Position numbers and translations under genes: made by a program | Assembly: GCA_902826025.1 (NCBI GenBank) | Contig: CADEDH010000016.1 | Span: forward strand, 52,423-103,606 | Direction of reading: 5' to 3' | DNA: 51,184 nt | From: an uncultured Actinomycetes bacterium | GTDB lineage: Bacteria; Actinomycetota; Acidimicrobiia; Acidimicrobiales; SZUA-35 | Notes under the pieces: model-generated | Seen by the model: only the letters and a program-made list of their open reading frames with translations | What the model was told of the DNA's origin: nothing | Database searches by the model: none | Shown: positions 903-10,109 of the stretch, one piece after another | How positions within the stretch are numbered: position 1 is the first letter of the stretch | Layout: each line of letters opens with the position of its first letter

Positions 903-1457
903 ATGACCGAGCCCCGCCCCTACTCCGACGCCGAGCTCACGCTGTCGGCCATCTCGGTCACGTTCCACCGGGCCCGGGCCGTGCAACAGGAGCTCACCGG
1001 GCCGCCCTCCTGGCCCCAGCCCGAGGCCGACCAGACCGAGGCCGAAGGGTACGGCGACGCCGACCTGGCCGAAGCGGTGGCGGGCGACGAGCCGGGCGGG
1101 CCGGCGGCGGTGGCCGAGGGCGGGGCACCCCCGCTCCCCCTCGACGACGACGAGGAGATCGACGAGGCCGATTTCCCCAACCCGTTCGTCACCGACGCCA
1201 ACTTCAGCCACTACCTCGACCGGGCCACCGCCCACCAGGGACGGGCCGCCGGCCTGCTCCGGGCCGTCCGCCGGCTGGCCCGGGGCGATCAGGCCCACTA
1301 CAACACCGCCGTCGTCAACGCCCTGCACCAGCTCGACCACCGGACCCGCTCCCAGCAGCGCACGATCACCCGCCTGGAGGCCGAGCTGGCCCGGGCCCGC
1401 CGGGCCCTGGCCGGCCTCGACGACACCCAGGACGCCTCGGAGGGTCCCCGCCCATGA
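903..1457 (+). CDS. Hypothetical acidic protein with C-terminal coiled coil
   Basis: This 184-residue soluble protein is not assigned to a family. Residues about 45-95 are acidic and Pro/Gly/Ala-rich and look disordered. The region FPNPFVTDANFSHYLDR (about 91-107) begins a more ordered part, and the C-terminus (about 135-175) is an Arg/Leu/Glu-rich helix likely to form a coiled coil. Its stop codon overlaps the start of the following glycosyltransferase by four bases (ATGA), so the two are translationally coupled. By context it may be an accessory or scaffold protein for glycan synthesis; that is inference only. Confidence 0.75.
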   Translation: MTEPRPYSDAELTLSAISVTFHRARAVQQELTGPPSWPQPEADQTEAEGYGDADLAEAVAGDEPGGPAAVAEGGAPPLPLDDDEEIDEADFPNPFVTDANFSHYLDRATAHQGRAAGLLRAVRRLARGDQAHYNTAVVNALHQLDHRTRSQQRTITRLEAELARARRALAGLDDTQDASEGPRP

Positions 1458-2671
1458 CCACCAGCCCGTCGATCGCCGTGGTGAAGCCCGACTTCGGAGC
1501 CCAGGGCGGCTTCGAGCGCCACCTCAACGGGATCGTGGCCGGGCTGCGGGAGCGGTCGTGGCGGGTGACCGTGGTGCAGATCGACGGCCGTACCCGGCCC
1601 CGGCGGCTGTGGGGCCTGCCGATCGACCCGGCCCAGCTGGCCAACCACGACGAGTACTTCATGCACATGGCGCTGGTGGAACGCACCCAGCAGCTCAACC
1701 TGCGCCACTTCGACGCCGTGCTCACCACCCAGCCCCCCACCTATCTGGTGCGCCACAGCCACAAGGTGGCGCTCTTCTACCACCAGCCCCGCCAGTTCTA
1801 CGACCTGGCCGTGCCCTTCATGGCCAGCGGCTTCGTCGACCCGGTGGTCCACCGGGCGGCCTGCCGGGCGGTGCGGACGCTGGAGCGGGAGGCGGTGCGG
1901 GACGTGCGCCTGTGGCTGGCCGGGTCGGCCGAGGTGGCGGCCCGGCTGGAGCGCTACTGGTCGATACCGCCCCACCTGATCGCCATCCACCGGGCGCCGC
2001 CAACCTCGGTGCCCGACGCCGCCCCCTGGCACCGGCCCGACGGGCCCATCGTGTGCGTGGGCCGCCAGGAGTGGCCCAAGCGCAGCGAGCTGCTGGTCCA
2101 GGCCATGCATCTCCTGGAGGTGAAGCGCACCGCCCACCTGGTGGGCGGAGGCAGCCGGCTGGAGTTCGTGCAGAGCTTCGACTCCGAGCTCCACCACGAC
2201 CCCGAGCGGGCCCGGGCCCCCTTCGACGACAAGGTGTGGCTCAACCGGGGCATCTTCACCAAGGGGTGGAAGCCCTACGGCGGGCCGCCCAGCGGCCGCA
2301 TCGTGTTCGAGGGCGACGTGAGCGACGAGCGGCGCGACCAGCTCTACGACGAGGCGGTGGCCGTGGTGGCCCCGGCCTACAAGGAGGACTACGGGCTCAC
2401 CGCGCTGGAGGCCATGGTCCGGGCCAAGCCCGTGATCGTGTGCCGCGACGGGGGCGGCCTCACCGAGATGGTGGTCGACGGCGAGACCGGCCTGGTGGTC
2501 GATCCCAATGCCCATGCCCTGGCCCGGGCGATCGACCGTCTGGTGCGGGACCCGGCCCGGGCGTCGCAGCTGGGGGAGGCGGCCCGCCGGGCCGTGATGG
2601 GCATCACGATGGACCAGGCCGTCCTCCAGGTGGAGCACGCCCTGCGGACGGTGCTCACGTCCCGCTGCTGA
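1454..2671 (+). CDS. GT4-type glycosyltransferase
   Basis: A 405-residue GT-B fold glycosyltransferase that would transfer a sugar from a nucleotide-sugar donor, probably in cell-surface glycan synthesis. The N-terminus has the acceptor-side pattern VVKPDFGAQGGFERHLNGIV (residues about 9-28), and the C-terminal donor domain carries EDYGLTALEAMVRAKPVI (about 314-331) and the TGLVVDP loop, typical of family GT4. No signal peptide or membrane segment is seen. It is coupled to the upstream coiled-coil gene and followed by a strong hairpin, so these two genes probably form a complete operon. Donor and acceptor cannot be inferred. Confidence 0.88.
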   Translation: MTTSPSIAVVKPDFGAQGGFERHLNGIVAGLRERSWRVTVVQIDGRTRPRRLWGLPIDPAQLANHDEYFMHMALVERTQQLNLRHFDAVLTTQPPTYLVRHSHKVALFYHQPRQFYDLAVPFMASGFVDPVVHRAACRAVRTLEREAVRDVRLWLAGSAEVAARLERYWSIPPHLIAIHRAPPTSVPDAAPWHRPDGPIVCVGRQEWPKRSELLVQAMHLLEVKRTAHLVGGGSRLEFVQSFDSELHHDPERARAPFDDKVWLNRGIFTKGWKPYGGPPSGRIVFEGDVSDERRDQLYDEAVAVVAPAYKEDYGLTALEAMVRAKPVIVCRDGGGLTEMVVDGETGLVVDPNAHALARAIDRLVRDPARASQLGEAARRAVMGITMDQAVLQVEHALRTVLTSRC

Positions 2672-5155: not shown

Positions 5156-6601
5156 CTAGGCCCAGTGGGCCAGGGTGTCTACCAGCAGGCGGACGCCGTA
5201 GCCGGTGGCCCCCTTGGTGAGGATCCCCTTCTCGGCCTCGGAGAAGGCGGCCATGCCAACATCGATGTGGGCCCAGGCGCCGTCGCCGGCGAACTCCTTG
5301 AGGAACAGGCCGGCCACCAGGGCCCCGCCGTAGGCCCCCGACCCGATGTTCTTCAGGTCGGCCACCGGCGAGTCGAGCTGGGAGCGGTACTCCTCGGGCA
5401 GCGGCAGGCGCCACACCGGCTCGCCGGTGCGGTCGCTGGCGGCGCCCAGGCGAGCGGCCAGATCGTCGTCGGTGGCCATCACCGCGGCATAGCTGCCGCC
5501 CAGGGCCACCGAGGCGGCGCCGGTGAGGGTGGCGATGTCGATGATGGCGTCGGGCTTGGTTTCGGCCGCCAGGCTCAGGGCGTCAGCCAGCACCAGTCGC
5601 CCCTCGGCATCGGTGTTCAGCACTTCCACCGTCTTGCCGTTGCGGGCCCGGAAGACGTCACCCGGGCGCTGGGCGTTCCCGCCGGTCATGTTGTCGGTGA
5701 GGGGGATCCAGCCGTCGACCGCCACCGGGGCGCCCACCGCTCCCAGCACGCTCATGGCCGCCAGCACGGCGGCCCCACCCGACATGTCGACCTTCATCGT
5801 CATCATCCCCGCCGCGGTCTTGAGCGACAGGCCACCGGAGTCGAACGTGATGCCCTTGCCCACCAGCGCCACCCGCCGCTCGGTCCGGCGGGCCGGCGTG
5901 TACTGGAGTCGCACGAGGCGGGCCGGGTTGACCGACCCCAGGTTCACGGCCACCAGCCCGCCCAGCTTCTCGCGGGCGATGCGGCGCTCGTCCCACACCG
6001 TGACCTTGAGCCCGGCCGCCGTGCCCACCTCGGTGGCCCGGCGGGCGAACGCATCGGGGGTGAGCGACCCACCCGGCTCGTTGGCCAGGTCCCGGGCGAG
6101 GCAGACGGCGTCGACCACGGCCGAGGCCCGGTCGACCAGGGCCTTGCCGCCCCGGCCCGGCACCACCACCGTGACCTTGTCGAGCTCGGTGTTGGTGGGC
6201 GTCTTGTACGCCGTGTAGCGGTACGTGGCCAGGCGGACGCCCTCCACCACGGCGGCCACGGCGTCGGCCCGCTGGGCGTCGGTGGCGTCCTCCCCCACCT
6301 CGGCCGCCAGCCGGGTGGCCACGGCGGCGTGACGGGAGACCGAACGGGCGTAGGCGGCGGCCGCCGTGCGGAGGGCGCCGGGGCCAACGTCGGCCCGGGG
6401 CCCGATGCCCACCAACAGCTCGAGCGGACCGCTGCCCTCGCCGGGAAGGGCCAGGACCTGGCCCGGCTTGCCTTCGAAACCCTGCAGCTGAGCGGCCCGC
6501 TTCAGCCCGGCGGGCAGGGCATCGAACTCGTCGGCGGCGACCGGGCGGTCGACGGCGGTGGCCGTGCGGGGGACGGAGGTGGCAGCAGCAACGGAGGGCA
6601 T
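5156..6601 (-). CDS. pepA: Leucyl aminopeptidase (M17)
   Basis: A 481-residue cytosolic M17 metallo-aminopeptidase that releases N-terminal amino acids from peptides and binds two metal ions. The family signature NTDAEGRLVLADAL starts at residue 329. Upstream are the metal/active-site segment LVGKGITFDSGGLSLK and KVDMSGGAAVL, and downstream DIATLTGAASVALG. Length and order match full-length M17 enzymes, with the N-terminal macro-like domain more diverged. The ATG at 6601 follows a weak purine-rich stretch. It is divergent from the TIR/beta-helix gene with only about 90 bases between them. Confidence 0.97.
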   Translation of the reverse strand: MPSVAAATSVPRTATAVDRPVAADEFDALPAGLKRAAQLQGFEGKPGQVLALPGEGSGPLELLVGIGPRADVGPGALRTAAAAYARSVSRHAAVATRLAAEVGEDATDAQRADAVAAVVEGVRLATYRYTAYKTPTNTELDKVTVVVPGRGGKALVDRASAVVDAVCLARDLANEPGGSLTPDAFARRATEVGTAAGLKVTVWDERRIAREKLGGLVAVNLGSVNPARLVRLQYTPARRTERRVALVGKGITFDSGGLSLKTAAGMMTMKVDMSGGAAVLAAMSVLGAVGAPVAVDGWIPLTDNMTGGNAQRPGDVFRARNGKTVEVLNTDAEGRLVLADALSLAAETKPDAIIDIATLTGAASVALGGSYAAVMATDDDLAARLGAASDRTGEPVWRLPLPEEYRSQLDSPVADLKNIGSGAYGGALVAGLFLKEFAGDGAWAHIDVGMAAFSEAEKGILTKGATGYGVRLLVDTLAHWA

Positions 6602-6693
6602 GGGGTCCGAGGTTAGTTGGCCGGGCGGCCCGCCCGTGCACCTGGTGAGGGGCCGACGGCGGCCGGGCGGCGCGCCATGCCATGATGCGGACG

Positions 6694-8007
6694 ATGAGCG
6701 CTGTCCTGCTGTGCCACGCCCCGGAGGATGACGAGGCCGAGGACGGCGCCATCTCCCGGTTCCGGGAGGCGCTGGAGGAGCGGGCCCGGTTCGTGACCGG
6801 ACGCCCGGAGCTGGAGATCGTGACCGACCGGACGTGGGTCTCGTGGAGCACCCGATGGCGTCAGGAGCTCGACGCCAGCCCCGACGAGTGCGGCCTACTC
6901 GTCGCCGTTCTCACCCCCCGCTGGTTCTCCCACGCCGGGTGCCGCCAGGAGCTCGAACGTTTCCGGCGGCGGGAGCAGGCGTCGGGCCGAACCGATCTCG
7001 TGGTGGGCGTCCACTGGTACCCGGCCGACCAGCTGGGTCAGGTCGGAACCACCCCGGCCGACGAGCTGGCAGTCGACCTCGCCGGGCGGGCGCCGGTCCC
7101 GTGGCACGAGCACCGCCACGAGCCGATCACGGGTCCGCCGGCAAAGCGCCACCTCGACGAGGTGGCCGAAAGGATCAAGGCCGCCCTCGGCCCGTCCCCC
7201 GCGGTGCGTACCCGGGTGGTCGATCCGATGCCGCTCCAGGGCGACCACACCACGATCACGGCCGCCATCCAGGCCGCCGTTCGGGGCGACCGCATCGCAG
7301 TTCGGCCCGGTGCCTACGACGAGACCCTCACCATCGACCGACCCGTAGAGATCGTGGGCGACGGCCCGGTCCACGACATCGTGGTACGGGCCCGGGGCGG
7401 CGATGCCGTGCTCCTCACCGCCCCCATCGCCCGGGTGGCCGGCCTCACCCTCCACCAGGCCGACACCGAGGGCGACTGGTACGGCGTCGACACCGGCACC
7501 GGCCGCCTGCTGGTCGAAGACTGCGTGATCACCAGCGACTCGCTGGCCTGTGTCAGCATCCGCAACGGCGCCGACCCGACCCTCCGGCGCAACTGGATCT
7601 CCGACGGCGCATCCGGTGGCGTCCTGGTGCACGAGGACGGGCTCGGCATCGTGGAGGACAACGAGATCACCGGGCACACCCTGGCCGGTGTGGAGATCAC
7701 CACCGGCGGCGACCCCATCGTGCGTCGCAACCGGATCACCGGCAACGCCCTGGGCGGGGTGTACGTGCACGACGGGGCCCTGGGCACGTTCGACGACAAC
7801 GAGATCACCGACAACGGCGACGCCGGGATCGACGTGGAGACCGGGGCCCACCCGCTCGTGCGCCGCAACCGGATCACGGGGAACCGGCGCCACGGGATCT
7901 GGATCCACGACGATGGCCGGATCACCCTCGAGGCCAACACGGTGCACGCCAACCGGCCGAAGGACGTCGAGATCGCCGACGACGCCGGCCCCGTCGACGA
8001 GCGCTGA
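6694..8007 (+). CDS. TIR-like domain fused to a right-handed beta-helix
   Basis: This 437-residue protein joins an N-terminal TIR/SEFIR-like domain (about 1-165) to a parallel beta-helix domain (about 180-425). The first part opens with MSAVLLCHAPEDDEA, like the beta-A strand of bacterial TIR domains, and contains CRQEL (83-87), where E86 aligns with the catalytic glutamate of TIR NADases. The second part has imperfect 23-residue rungs containing R-x-N-x-I-T/S-x-N, e.g. VRRNRITGN twice. No signal peptide or membrane segment is seen. The third in-frame ATG at 6694 is preferred because CATGAT lies 7 bases upstream and it begins exactly at the domain; 6682 is an alternative. Function is unknown; NAD cleavage or signalling triggered by the helix domain is speculation. 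Confidence 0.85.
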   Translation: MSAVLLCHAPEDDEAEDGAISRFREALEERARFVTGRPELEIVTDRTWVSWSTRWRQELDASPDECGLLVAVLTPRWFSHAGCRQELERFRRREQASGRTDLVVGVHWYPADQLGQVGTTPADELAVDLAGRAPVPWHEHRHEPITGPPAKRHLDEVAERIKAALGPSPAVRTRVVDPMPLQGDHTTITAAIQAAVRGDRIAVRPGAYDETLTIDRPVEIVGDGPVHDIVVRARGGDAVLLTAPIARVAGLTLHQADTEGDWYGVDTGTGRLLVEDCVITSDSLACVSIRNGADPTLRRNWISDGASGGVLVHEDGLGIVEDNEITGHTLAGVEITTGGDPIVRRNRITGNALGGVYVHDGALGTFDDNEITDNGDAGIDVETGAHPLVRRNRITGNRRHGIWIHDDGRITLEANTVHANRPKDVEIADDAGPVDER

Positions 8008-8036
8008 CGCCCCCCGGGGAGGAGGGGCAGGACGCG

Positions 8037-8942
8037 CTACGCCCCGGGAAGCTGCTGGCGCAGGGTGGCGGTGGGGGCGAACAGATCGCCCCGGTCCGCC
8101 ACCCGCTCCAGCACGTCGGCCGCCTCGAACGACAGGGCCTCGCCGTCGGCCCCGGCCGCCACCTCGTCCCACGACACCGGCGTCGACACCGTGGGCCGGG
8201 CCAGAGCCCGCAGGGAGTAGGCGGCGATCGTGGTCTTGTGCCGCGAGTTCTGCGACCAGTCGACGAACACCTTGCCCGCCCGCAGCGACTTCGTCATCTC
8301 CACCAGCACCCGGTCGGGCTGCTGGCGGGCCAGCAGCTGGCCGCAGGCCCGGGTGAAGTCGGCGGCCTGATCGTGGGTATGGGGGCAGTTGAGCGGCACG
8401 TACACCTGCAGCCCCTTCGACCCCGATGTCTTGGGGAACGCCTCCAACCCCACCGCGGCCAGGATCTCGTGCAGATCGAGGGCGACCTGGCAACACTCCC
8501 GCATCCCGGCCGGGGCTCCGGGGTCGAGATCGAACACGGCCATCGTCGGGCTCTCGATGTCGTCGGCCCGGGCCATGGGGGCGTGGAGCTCGATGGCGGC
8601 CAGGTTGGCCGTCCACACCAGCGCCGCCGCTTCGTCGAGGCGACAGTACGGAATGTCGCCGTCCCGGTCGCCGGGGCCGATCGACACCGGCACCCAGTCC
8701 GGCCGGGGCGACGGGCATCGCTTGTTGAAGAACGACTGACCGTCCACCCCGTTGGGCCACCGTCGCAGCGTCATGCACCGCCGAGCCACGTGGGAGACCA
8801 TCACCGGGGCGATCCGGGCGTAGTAGTCGATCACCTGGGCCTTGGTGAAGCCGATCTCGGGATAGAAGACCTTGCTCAGGTTGACCAGGCTCAGCGAGCG
8901 GTCACCGACCGCCACCGACACCCGCTGCTCGGAAGGCGCCAC
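8037..8942 (-). CDS. ligD: Stand-alone LigD-type polymerase domain (NHEJ)
   Basis: A 301-residue primase-polymerase of the LigD POL family, which adds or fills nucleotides at broken DNA ends during non-homologous end joining. Motifs seen are LSKVFYPEIGFTK (about 22-34), the metal-binding FDLDP (137-141), SGSKGLQVYVPL (173-184) and the third acidic site VFVDW (D228). There is no ligase or phosphoesterase domain in this polypeptide. The position usually held by His in SGSKGxH is Q179 here. GTG start. It lies 12 bases downstream of ku on the same strand, so the two are co-transcribed; the matching ligase must be encoded elsewhere. Confidence 0.93.
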   Translation of the reverse strand: MAPSEQRVSVAVGDRSLSLVNLSKVFYPEIGFTKAQVIDYYARIAPVMVSHVARRCMTLRRWPNGVDGQSFFNKRCPSPRPDWVPVSIGPGDRDGDIPYCRLDEAAALVWTANLAAIELHAPMARADDIESPTMAVFDLDPGAPAGMRECCQVALDLHEILAAVGLEAFPKTSGSKGLQVYVPLNCPHTHDQAADFTRACGQLLARQQPDRVLVEMTKSLRAGKVFVDWSQNSRHKTTIAAYSLRALARPTVSTPVSWDEVAAGADGEALSFEAADVLERVADRGDLFAPTATLRQQLPGA

Positions 8943-8954
8943 CGCGGGTGGCGC

Positions 8955-9974
8955 TCAGGCGGCCCGGGTCTTCTTGGCTGCGGTCTTGCCCTTGCCCCCG
9001 CTGCCCTTGCCCCCGGCACCGCCGGTCTTGCCGGCACCGTCGCCGGTACCGACCCGCTTCGACGCCCTGACCGGTGCCTCGTCGCCGGCCGCCACCGCCT
9101 TGGCCTTGGCCCGGCTCCGGGGCTTGGCGGCGGCCGCCTTCCCGTCGTCGGCCGCCTCAGCGGAGGGATCCCCGCTCCCGGCGTTGCGGCGGGCCTCCTT
9201 GGCTGCGTTGACGCTGGCCTCCAGGGCGGCCAGCAGGTCGATCACACCTTCGTCGGCGGCGGCCGGCACGGCCTCCACCGACGTGACCTCGCCGTTGGCC
9301 TTCGCCTCCAGCAGGTCGAGCACCTGCAAGCGGTAGCCGTCCTGGTAGCGCTCGGGCTCGAAGTCGCTCGACAGGGAGTCGATCAGCTGATCGGCCAGGG
9401 CCAACTCGGCCTCGGTGGCAGTGACGGCGGCCAGCTCTTCCAGACCCGGGATGTCGGCCGGGGCCACCACCTCGTCGGCGTAGACCATCGTCGACATCAT
9501 GAGGGCCCCGTCGACCGGACGGATGGCCACCAGGTACTGCTTGGTCCGCATCACGAAGGTGGCGATCGCCACCCGGTTGGACTCCTCCATGGCCCGGCAC
9601 AGCAGCACGTAGGACTTGCGGGCCAGCTCCTCGGGCACCAGGTAATACGGGGAGTCGTAGAAAACGGGGTCGATCTCGGAGCCGTCGACGAAATCGCTGA
9701 TGTCGATCATCCGGCTGGCCTTGGGCGACAACGCCGCCAATTCGTCGTCGGTGACGATCACGTAGCTGTCCTTGGCCACCTCGTAGCCCTTGACGATGCG
9801 GTCGTAGGGGACCTCTTCGCCTTCGGCGTTGACCCGCTTCTGGCGGATCCGGCTGTTGGTGGCCGAGTCGAGCTGGTTGAAGCTGACGTTCTTGTGGGTG
9901 ATGGCCGAGAACAGCTTCACCGGGATCGAGACGAGGCCGAAGCTGATCGCTCCGCTCCAGATGGCTCGTGGCAT
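8955..9974 (-). CDS. ku: Ku-type DNA end-binding protein
   Basis: A 339-residue bacterial Ku homolog. As a homodimer it would ring DNA ends and recruit LigD-type enzymes for end joining. The Ku core begins at the start codon, MPRAIWSGAISFGLVSIPVKL, and continues through YEVAKDSYVIVTDDEL and RTKQYLVAIRP. After about residue 255 comes a long Lys/Ala/Gly-rich basic tail, as in mycobacterial Ku, likely a DNA-binding extension. The ATG at 9974 has a good AGGAG site 6 bases upstream; the frame is open for 32 more codons but these are not Ku-like. First gene of a ku-ligD operon. Confidence 0.96.
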   Translation of the reverse strand: MPRAIWSGAISFGLVSIPVKLFSAITHKNVSFNQLDSATNSRIRQKRVNAEGEEVPYDRIVKGYEVAKDSYVIVTDDELAALSPKASRMIDISDFVDGSEIDPVFYDSPYYLVPEELARKSYVLLCRAMEESNRVAIATFVMRTKQYLVAIRPVDGALMMSTMVYADEVVAPADIPGLEELAAVTATEAELALADQLIDSLSSDFEPERYQDGYRLQVLDLLEAKANGEVTSVEAVPAAADEGVIDLLAALEASVNAAKEARRNAGSGDPSAEAADDGKAAAAKPRSRAKAKAVAAGDEAPVRASKRVGTGDGAGKTGGAGGKGSGGKGKTAAKKTRAA

Positions 9975-10109
9975 GGTGTCTCCTCGTCGGTGGGCGCCCG
10001 GTGGGACCGTCGCCGAAGCTACGGGCCCATCGGCAGTACCCGGAGGCCCGTGACCATCACACCGGACCACCAGACTACAAGGCGCTCCCCGGGCGGGGAA
10101 GAGCCAGGT

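What the first reader, a model, noticed from the sequence alone, without database searches (positions are those of the whole stretch)
6694..8007. TIR-like domain joined to a beta-helix domain
The first 165 residues resemble TIR/SEFIR domains, including a CRQEL segment with a candidate catalytic Glu (E86), while the last 250 form regular 23-residue beta-helix rungs. Bacterial TIR proteins often act in NAD-based defence or signalling. A beta-helix could bind a carbohydrate, protein or another copy. No other defence gene is recognised nearby, but the adjacent ku-ligD pair is on the other strand 30 bases downstream.
Basis: partly seen in the sequence, partly recalled or inferred. Interest (0 to 1): 0.6.

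Follow-up and report, generated by a model that had tools for sequence, protein, structure and literature searches.

The report
TIR domain fused to beta-helix repeats
This bacterial gene joins an immune-type enzyme domain (TIR) to a rod of regular repeats (a beta-helix) in one protein; the same combination occurs in two bacterial phyla, so it looks like a little-described single-gene sensor, probably for defence, although its activity has not been tested.

Summary
Window 6694-8007 (+) encodes 437 aa: an N-terminal TIR domain (1-165) and a C-terminal right-handed beta-helix (about 173-427). The TIR call is weak by direct Pfam match (22.4 bits, cut-off 28), but relatives pass the cut-off and all 50 listed structural matches of the predicted domain are TIR domains (Z 13.3 to 10.5). 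Rungs are 23 aa; the true repeat unit is 46 aa (alternating RRN/EDN rungs). The fusion is not a one-off: full-length relatives (37% identity over both domains) occur in a Blastocatellia MAG and in Frankia, and their beta-helices form one supported clade. E86 is invariant in 21 of 21 TIR domains and aligns with the catalytic-Glu motif of NAD-cleaving TIRs. However, this copy alone has lost the box-1 Ser-Tyr (now Cys-His) and the BB-loop Gly, so its activity is uncertain. The ku-ligD link is not supported: in a same-genus genome pepA and ligD lie about 100 bp apart with no TIR gene. No partner gene is shared between phyla. Best reading: an orphan single-gene receptor, beta-helix as sensor or scaffold and TIR as effector. 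New variant of a known kind.

The parts
6682..8007 (+). TIR-beta-helix gene (437 aa from ATG 6694; 441 aa from ATG 6682)
   Evidence: full-length relatives L124 and L126
6694..7188 (+). TIR domain, residues 1-165
   Evidence: AF2 model of residues 1-170, pLDDT 82, pTM 0.81; all 50 listed structural matches are TIR; profile from 21 relatives hits PDB TIR domains
6949..6951 (+). codon of E86, predicted catalytic Glu in CRQEL
   Evidence: invariant in 21 of 21 TIR domains; aligns with the SKWCLMEL Glu of flax L6 and with AT1G72930 and Cat1
6712..6717 (+). codons of C7-H8, where all 20 relatives have Ser-Tyr (box 1); S52 (6847-6849) likewise replaces the BB-loop Gly of 19 of 20
7210..7974 (+). right-handed beta-helix, residues about 173-427
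   Evidence: PF13229; strands of the model; VIA-align Z up to 27.0 over 172-437
7486..7968 (+). seven regular 23-aa rungs (46-aa double-rung repeat, RRN and EDN alternating)
5156..6601 (-). context: leucyl aminopeptidase (Peptidase_M17), divergent
8037..8942 (-). context: LigD primase-polymerase domain protein, convergent
8955..10070 (-). context: Ku

Best explanation
A cytoplasmic single-gene receptor-effector. The C-terminal beta-helix is the sensing or scaffolding part: it binds a ligand (a phage-derived or stress-linked protein, glycan or polymer) or other copies of itself, and so brings N-terminal TIR domains together. Assembled TIR domains then cleave NAD or make an ADP-ribose-type signal through E86, harming or warning the infected cell. 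Shown here: the two domains, their joint conservation across phyla, conservation of E86, the lack of any shared partner gene. Inferred: ligand sensing by the helix, assembly-driven activation, NAD cleavage, and the defence role.
For: Same architecture in Acidimicrobiia-like hosts (window), Blastocatellia (L124) and Frankiales (L126, L162). Beta-helices of the TIR fusions are one clade, support 97/97, window beside the Blastocatellia copy, which points to transfer between phyla. E86 and C83 invariant in 21 of 21 and aligned with the catalytic-Glu motif of plant and bacterial TIRs (that L6 needs this Glu is from memory). The same TIR type is fused to a NACHT-associated NA-iREase3 domain (L163), an NLR-like setting, and to a CobT-type vWA domain (L125); TIR domains as exchangeable effectors of such conflict systems: PMC7159879. 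The beta-helix is itself swapped onto kinases, AAA ATPases and an unnamed helical domain, as expected of a sensor or scaffold. Patchy occurrence and an empty site in the same genus fit a gained accessory gene. No shared neighbours between phyla.
Against: No recognised defence gene stands next to it in the window or in the relatives looked at; PADLOC finds nothing in the window protein and only weak partial TIR matches in relatives. This copy alone lost box-1 Ser-Tyr, the BB-loop Gly and other near-invariant residues and has a long branch, so its TIR may be inactive. The TIR domains of the beta-helix proteins are not one clade (AU p 0.009), so the domain pairing may have been reshuffled. Nothing identifies a ligand.
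Confidence: 0.5

Rival explanations
1. A TIR scaffold without NAD cleavage: the TIR domain of this copy has lost catalysis and only mediates TIR-TIR contacts, with the beta-helix as a protein-binding rod.
For: Window alone differs at L5, C7, H8, V43, S52, H80 and G105, positions that 18-20 of 20 relatives share; long end branch 1.75; BB-loop region poorly predicted (pLDDT 54-72).
Against: D12, D45, C83, R84 and E86 are kept; the reading frame is intact with normal codon bias.
Confidence: 0.25
2. A signalling or housekeeping regulator (cell envelope, stress or cell cycle), not defence; the TIR domain makes a regulatory NAD-derived signal.
For: Chromosomal setting among housekeeping genes, composition like the neighbours; kin of the beta-helix sits on kinases and on AAA proteins, one of them in a type VII secretion locus; a TIR relative is joined to DivIVA-like repeats (L164).
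Against: Very patchy: no full-length match in the other 38 genomes of the family, including one of the same genus, unlike a core regulator.
Confidence: 0.2
3. A carbohydrate-active or carbohydrate-binding beta-helix enzyme (AlgE, pectin methylesterase, NosD-like) with a TIR appendage.
For: Best solved structures for the helix are AlgE-type epimerases, lyases and pectin methylesterases.
Against: No signal peptide ahead of the TIR domain, so cytoplasmic; rungs are strictly regular without inserted loops; sequence similarity to those enzymes is limited to the repeat (E about 1e-5), and a shared fold shows no function.
Confidence: 0.05

Closest known systems
TIR_2 (PF13676) bacterial TIR domain proteins such as AbTir, BtTir, TcpB
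   Same: fold, and conserved Glu in the alpha-C motif
   Different: C-terminal beta-helix; box-1 Ser-Tyr and BB-loop Gly lost in this copy
Plant TIR-NLR receptors and actinobacterial TIR-TPR proteins (N-terminal TIR, C-terminal repeats; Group 6 in PMC7075850)
   Same: N-terminal TIR followed by a C-terminal repeat domain
   Different: no NTPase in between; beta-helix in place of LRR or TPR; box sequences differ from the Group 6 consensus
FxsC, TIR-like protein of FxSxx peptide systems (NF040588)
   Same: nearest named model for this TIR type: 29 bits in the window, 65 bits in L126
   Different: far below the 130-bit cut-off; no FxsB radical-SAM protein over cut-off in the genome; different C-terminus
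Beta-helix-AAA (CbxX-like) proteins of Streptomyces and beta-helix-kinases of Blastocatellia
   Same: homologous beta-helix cap and rungs
   Different: another effector part in place of TIR

Membership tests
TIR domain superfamily | TIR fold | tested here: met
   all 50 listed structural matches are TIR domains, Z 13.3 to 10.5
Pfam TIR_2 (PF13676) | score over the curated cut-off | tested here: not met
   22.4 bits against 28 for this copy; relatives L124, L126, L036 pass with 45-54 bits
NAD-cleaving TIR | catalytic Glu in the alpha-C motif | tested here: met
   E86 in 21 of 21, aligned with L6, AT1G72930, Cat1
NAD-cleaving TIR | box-1 Ser-Tyr and BB-loop Gly as in the rest of this subfamily | tested here: not met
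   C7-H8 and S52 in the window copy
NAD-cleaving TIR | measured NAD cleavage | not testable with these tools
   needs a biochemical assay
Right-handed beta-helix (PF13229) | Pfam over cut-off and 22-23-aa rung periodicity | tested here: met
   116.7 bits against 25.9; period 23/46
FxsC | NF040588 over its cut-off and FxsB in the genome | tested here: not met
   29.3 bits against 130; best FxsB-like match 30.9 bits against 370
Known anti-phage system in PADLOC 2.0 | match to a PADLOC model | tested here: not met
   no family at E 1 or less for the window protein
Ku-LigD repair module | conserved linkage with ku and ligD | tested here: not met
   pepA-ligD-ku present without the gene in the same genus and family; relatives elsewhere lie by other genes

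The most novel reading that the evidence does not exclude
A cross-phylum, single-gene immune receptor family in which a beta-helix of variable repeat number senses a phage or cell-damage ligand directly and drives TIR assembly and NAD loss: a TIR-NLR-like receptor without an NTPase.
Probability: 0.3. Interest if true: 0.8.

Novelty: new variant of a known kind. Interest (0 to 1): 0.52.

Why it matters
If right, it adds a beta-helix to the repeat folds that arm TIR effectors, in a one-gene form that can be expressed and tested at once. No paper found in the searched library describes it. The modularity (the same TIR type on NACHT-associated, vWA and beta-helix proteins; the same helix type on TIR, kinase and AAA proteins) makes the helix a candidate general sensor or scaffold module in bacteria.

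Tried and rejected
Functional tie to ku-ligD: rejected. FxsC membership: rejected. SEFIR: no hit. PADLOC systems: none for the window protein; relatives only weak partial TIR matches. Phage origin: no match in the phage collection for the window protein or the Frankia homologue. Plasmids: beta-helix matches only, no record covering 80% of the query. Single origin of the TIR domains of the four fusions: rejected at AU p 0.009, with long-branch caution. L004 (G005), a classic TIR_2 plus beta-helix, is a separate case with a distant TIR and a distant helix. Promoter and terminator scans found nothing. The paper library is open-access only, so absence of reports there is weak evidence.

Full report
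What is there. Window 6694-8007 (+) is an open frame of 437 codons, with codon-position composition like its neighbours. It lies between pepA (5156-6601, divergent) and a LigD primase-polymerase gene and ku (8037-10070, convergent). It is a single gene on its strand.

N-terminal domain. Directly, it matches TIR_2 only at 22.4 bits, below the cut-off, and the FxsC N-terminus model at 29 bits. Six relatives from the same class (G150 twice, G143, G061, G113, G654) gave a usable family; several score over the TIR_2 cut-off. AlphaFold2 on residues 1-170 with nine sequences gave pLDDT 82 and pTM 0.81, with a weak BB-loop region. VIA-align against Foldseek's candidates listed 50 PDB entries, all TIR domains: SPARTA Z 13.3 (rmsd 3.0, 137 aligned), Cat1 13.1, RUN1 12.1, AbTir 11.6, SARM1 10.8. 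Foldseek's own best E is 1.1e-3.

C-terminal domain. PF13229 at 1e-33; the full-length model (pLDDT 82) aligns over residues 172-437 to AlgE-type and other beta-helices at Z up to 27. Residues 265-425 are seven 23-aa rungs; self-similarity is highest at 46 (mean 1.83, 0 of 2000 shuffles), because RRN and EDN rungs alternate. The same two-rung unit is seen in the Frankia and Blastocatellia relatives, in different numbers. There is no signal peptide ahead of the TIR domain, so the protein should be cytoplasmic (sequence).

The fusion is real and spread across phyla. A scan of 84,980 species genomes with three close TIR domains found six loci; two, a Blastocatellia MAG (L124) and Frankia sp. (L126), carry TIR plus beta-helix in one frame, and Protofrankia (L128, L131) carries the same parts in two frames around an undetermined base. 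A further copy lies in G1085 of the same order as Frankia. Window and L124 share 37% identity over both domains, window and L126 also 37%. In a tree of the helix cap and first rungs, the five TIR-fused helices form one clade (97/97), with the window beside the Blastocatellia copy (93/88). The TIR domains do not form one clade (AU p 0.009), so TIR parts have been exchanged, or lent to other architectures.

Catalytic signs. In 21 TIR domains of this type D12, D45, C83 and E86 are invariant. A profile of them aligns E86 to the Glu of SKWCLMEL in flax L6, and to the matching Glu of AT1G72930 and Cat1. From memory, that Glu is needed for NAD cleavage by L6. Against this, the window protein alone carries C7-H8 for Ser-Tyr, S52 for Gly, and L5, V43, H80 and G105 at positions otherwise 90-100% conserved. 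It is the most derived member, and its activity cannot be taken for granted.

Context. Of 39 genomes of the family, only the window's has the fusion. Same-genus G570 has ligD and pepA about 100 bp apart with nothing between, close to the 80 plus 29 bp that flank the gene here. In G107, G581, G571 and G573 the same junction holds a predicted secreted repeat protein instead. The junction is thus a variable slot, and ku-ligD is a bystander. Neighbours in Blastocatellia (a penicillin-binding protein, an esterase-like protein, a sulfurtransferase-like protein) and Frankia (TypA-like, NUDIX-like, YchF-like), named by reading the sequence, share nothing with the window.

Module sharing. The TIR type also heads proteins with a NACHT-associated NA-iREase3 domain, a CobT-type vWA domain, DivIVA-like repeats or coiled coils, and follows an AAA_14-DUF4143 part in one. 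The beta-helix type is carried by Ser/Thr kinases, by AAA (CbxX-like) proteins, one of them in a type VII secretion locus, and by proteins with an unnamed helical N-domain in at least eight Blastocatellia genomes. In NLR-like and ternary conflict systems TIR and other effector parts are exchanged in this way (PMC7159879), which is the main ground for a defence reading. TIR with C-terminal TPR repeats is known in actinobacteria (PMC7075850).

Judgement. Shown: domains, cross-phylum family, conserved Glu, absence of shared partners, empty site. Inferred: sensing by the helix, assembly, NAD cleavage, defence. I put the receptor-effector reading at 0.5 and rate it a new variant of a known kind.

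Noticed in passing
window 6602-8036; G107, G581, G571, G573 (loci L088-L091): The pepA-ligD junction is a variable slot in this family: empty, TIR-beta-helix, or a 640-875 aa predicted secreted repeat protein (70% to 43% alike among genomes).
   Followed up: partly
L138-L149 (Blastocatellia genomes G935, G936, G941, G943, G947, G968, G1034, G1037): A close relative of this beta-helix is fused to an N-terminal helical domain (MNDxPRQKLREIVxxHG...RRCExLLRDYCGxxRREI) with no Pfam match.
   Followed up: partly
L163 (G1091:C1 near 6043236, minus strand): The same TIR type heads a 2043-codon open frame that holds a NACHT-associated inactive REase domain (NA-iREase3), apparently an NLR-like system.
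   Followed up: no
L004 1393-3780 (G005): A separate, classic TIR_2 plus long beta-helix protein of 795 aa in another family of the same order.
   Followed up: partly
L065 4980-8291 (Streptomyces chartreusis plasmid NZ_CP108842.1): Beta-helix plus two AAA domains (CbxX-like) next to an S8 peptidase and eccCa of a type VII secretion locus.
   Followed up: no
L126 2974-3570 and L185 6424-6894: In two Frankiales genomes a MutT-like NUDIX gene lies next to the TIR-beta-helix gene; probably plain synteny, but NUDIX enzymes can act on ADP-ribose.
   Followed up: no
window 1454-2671: Glycosyltransferase with a marginal match to GT4-conflict (26.7 bits, cut-off 26), about 4 kb from the TIR gene; more likely an ordinary family-4 enzyme.
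   Followed up: no
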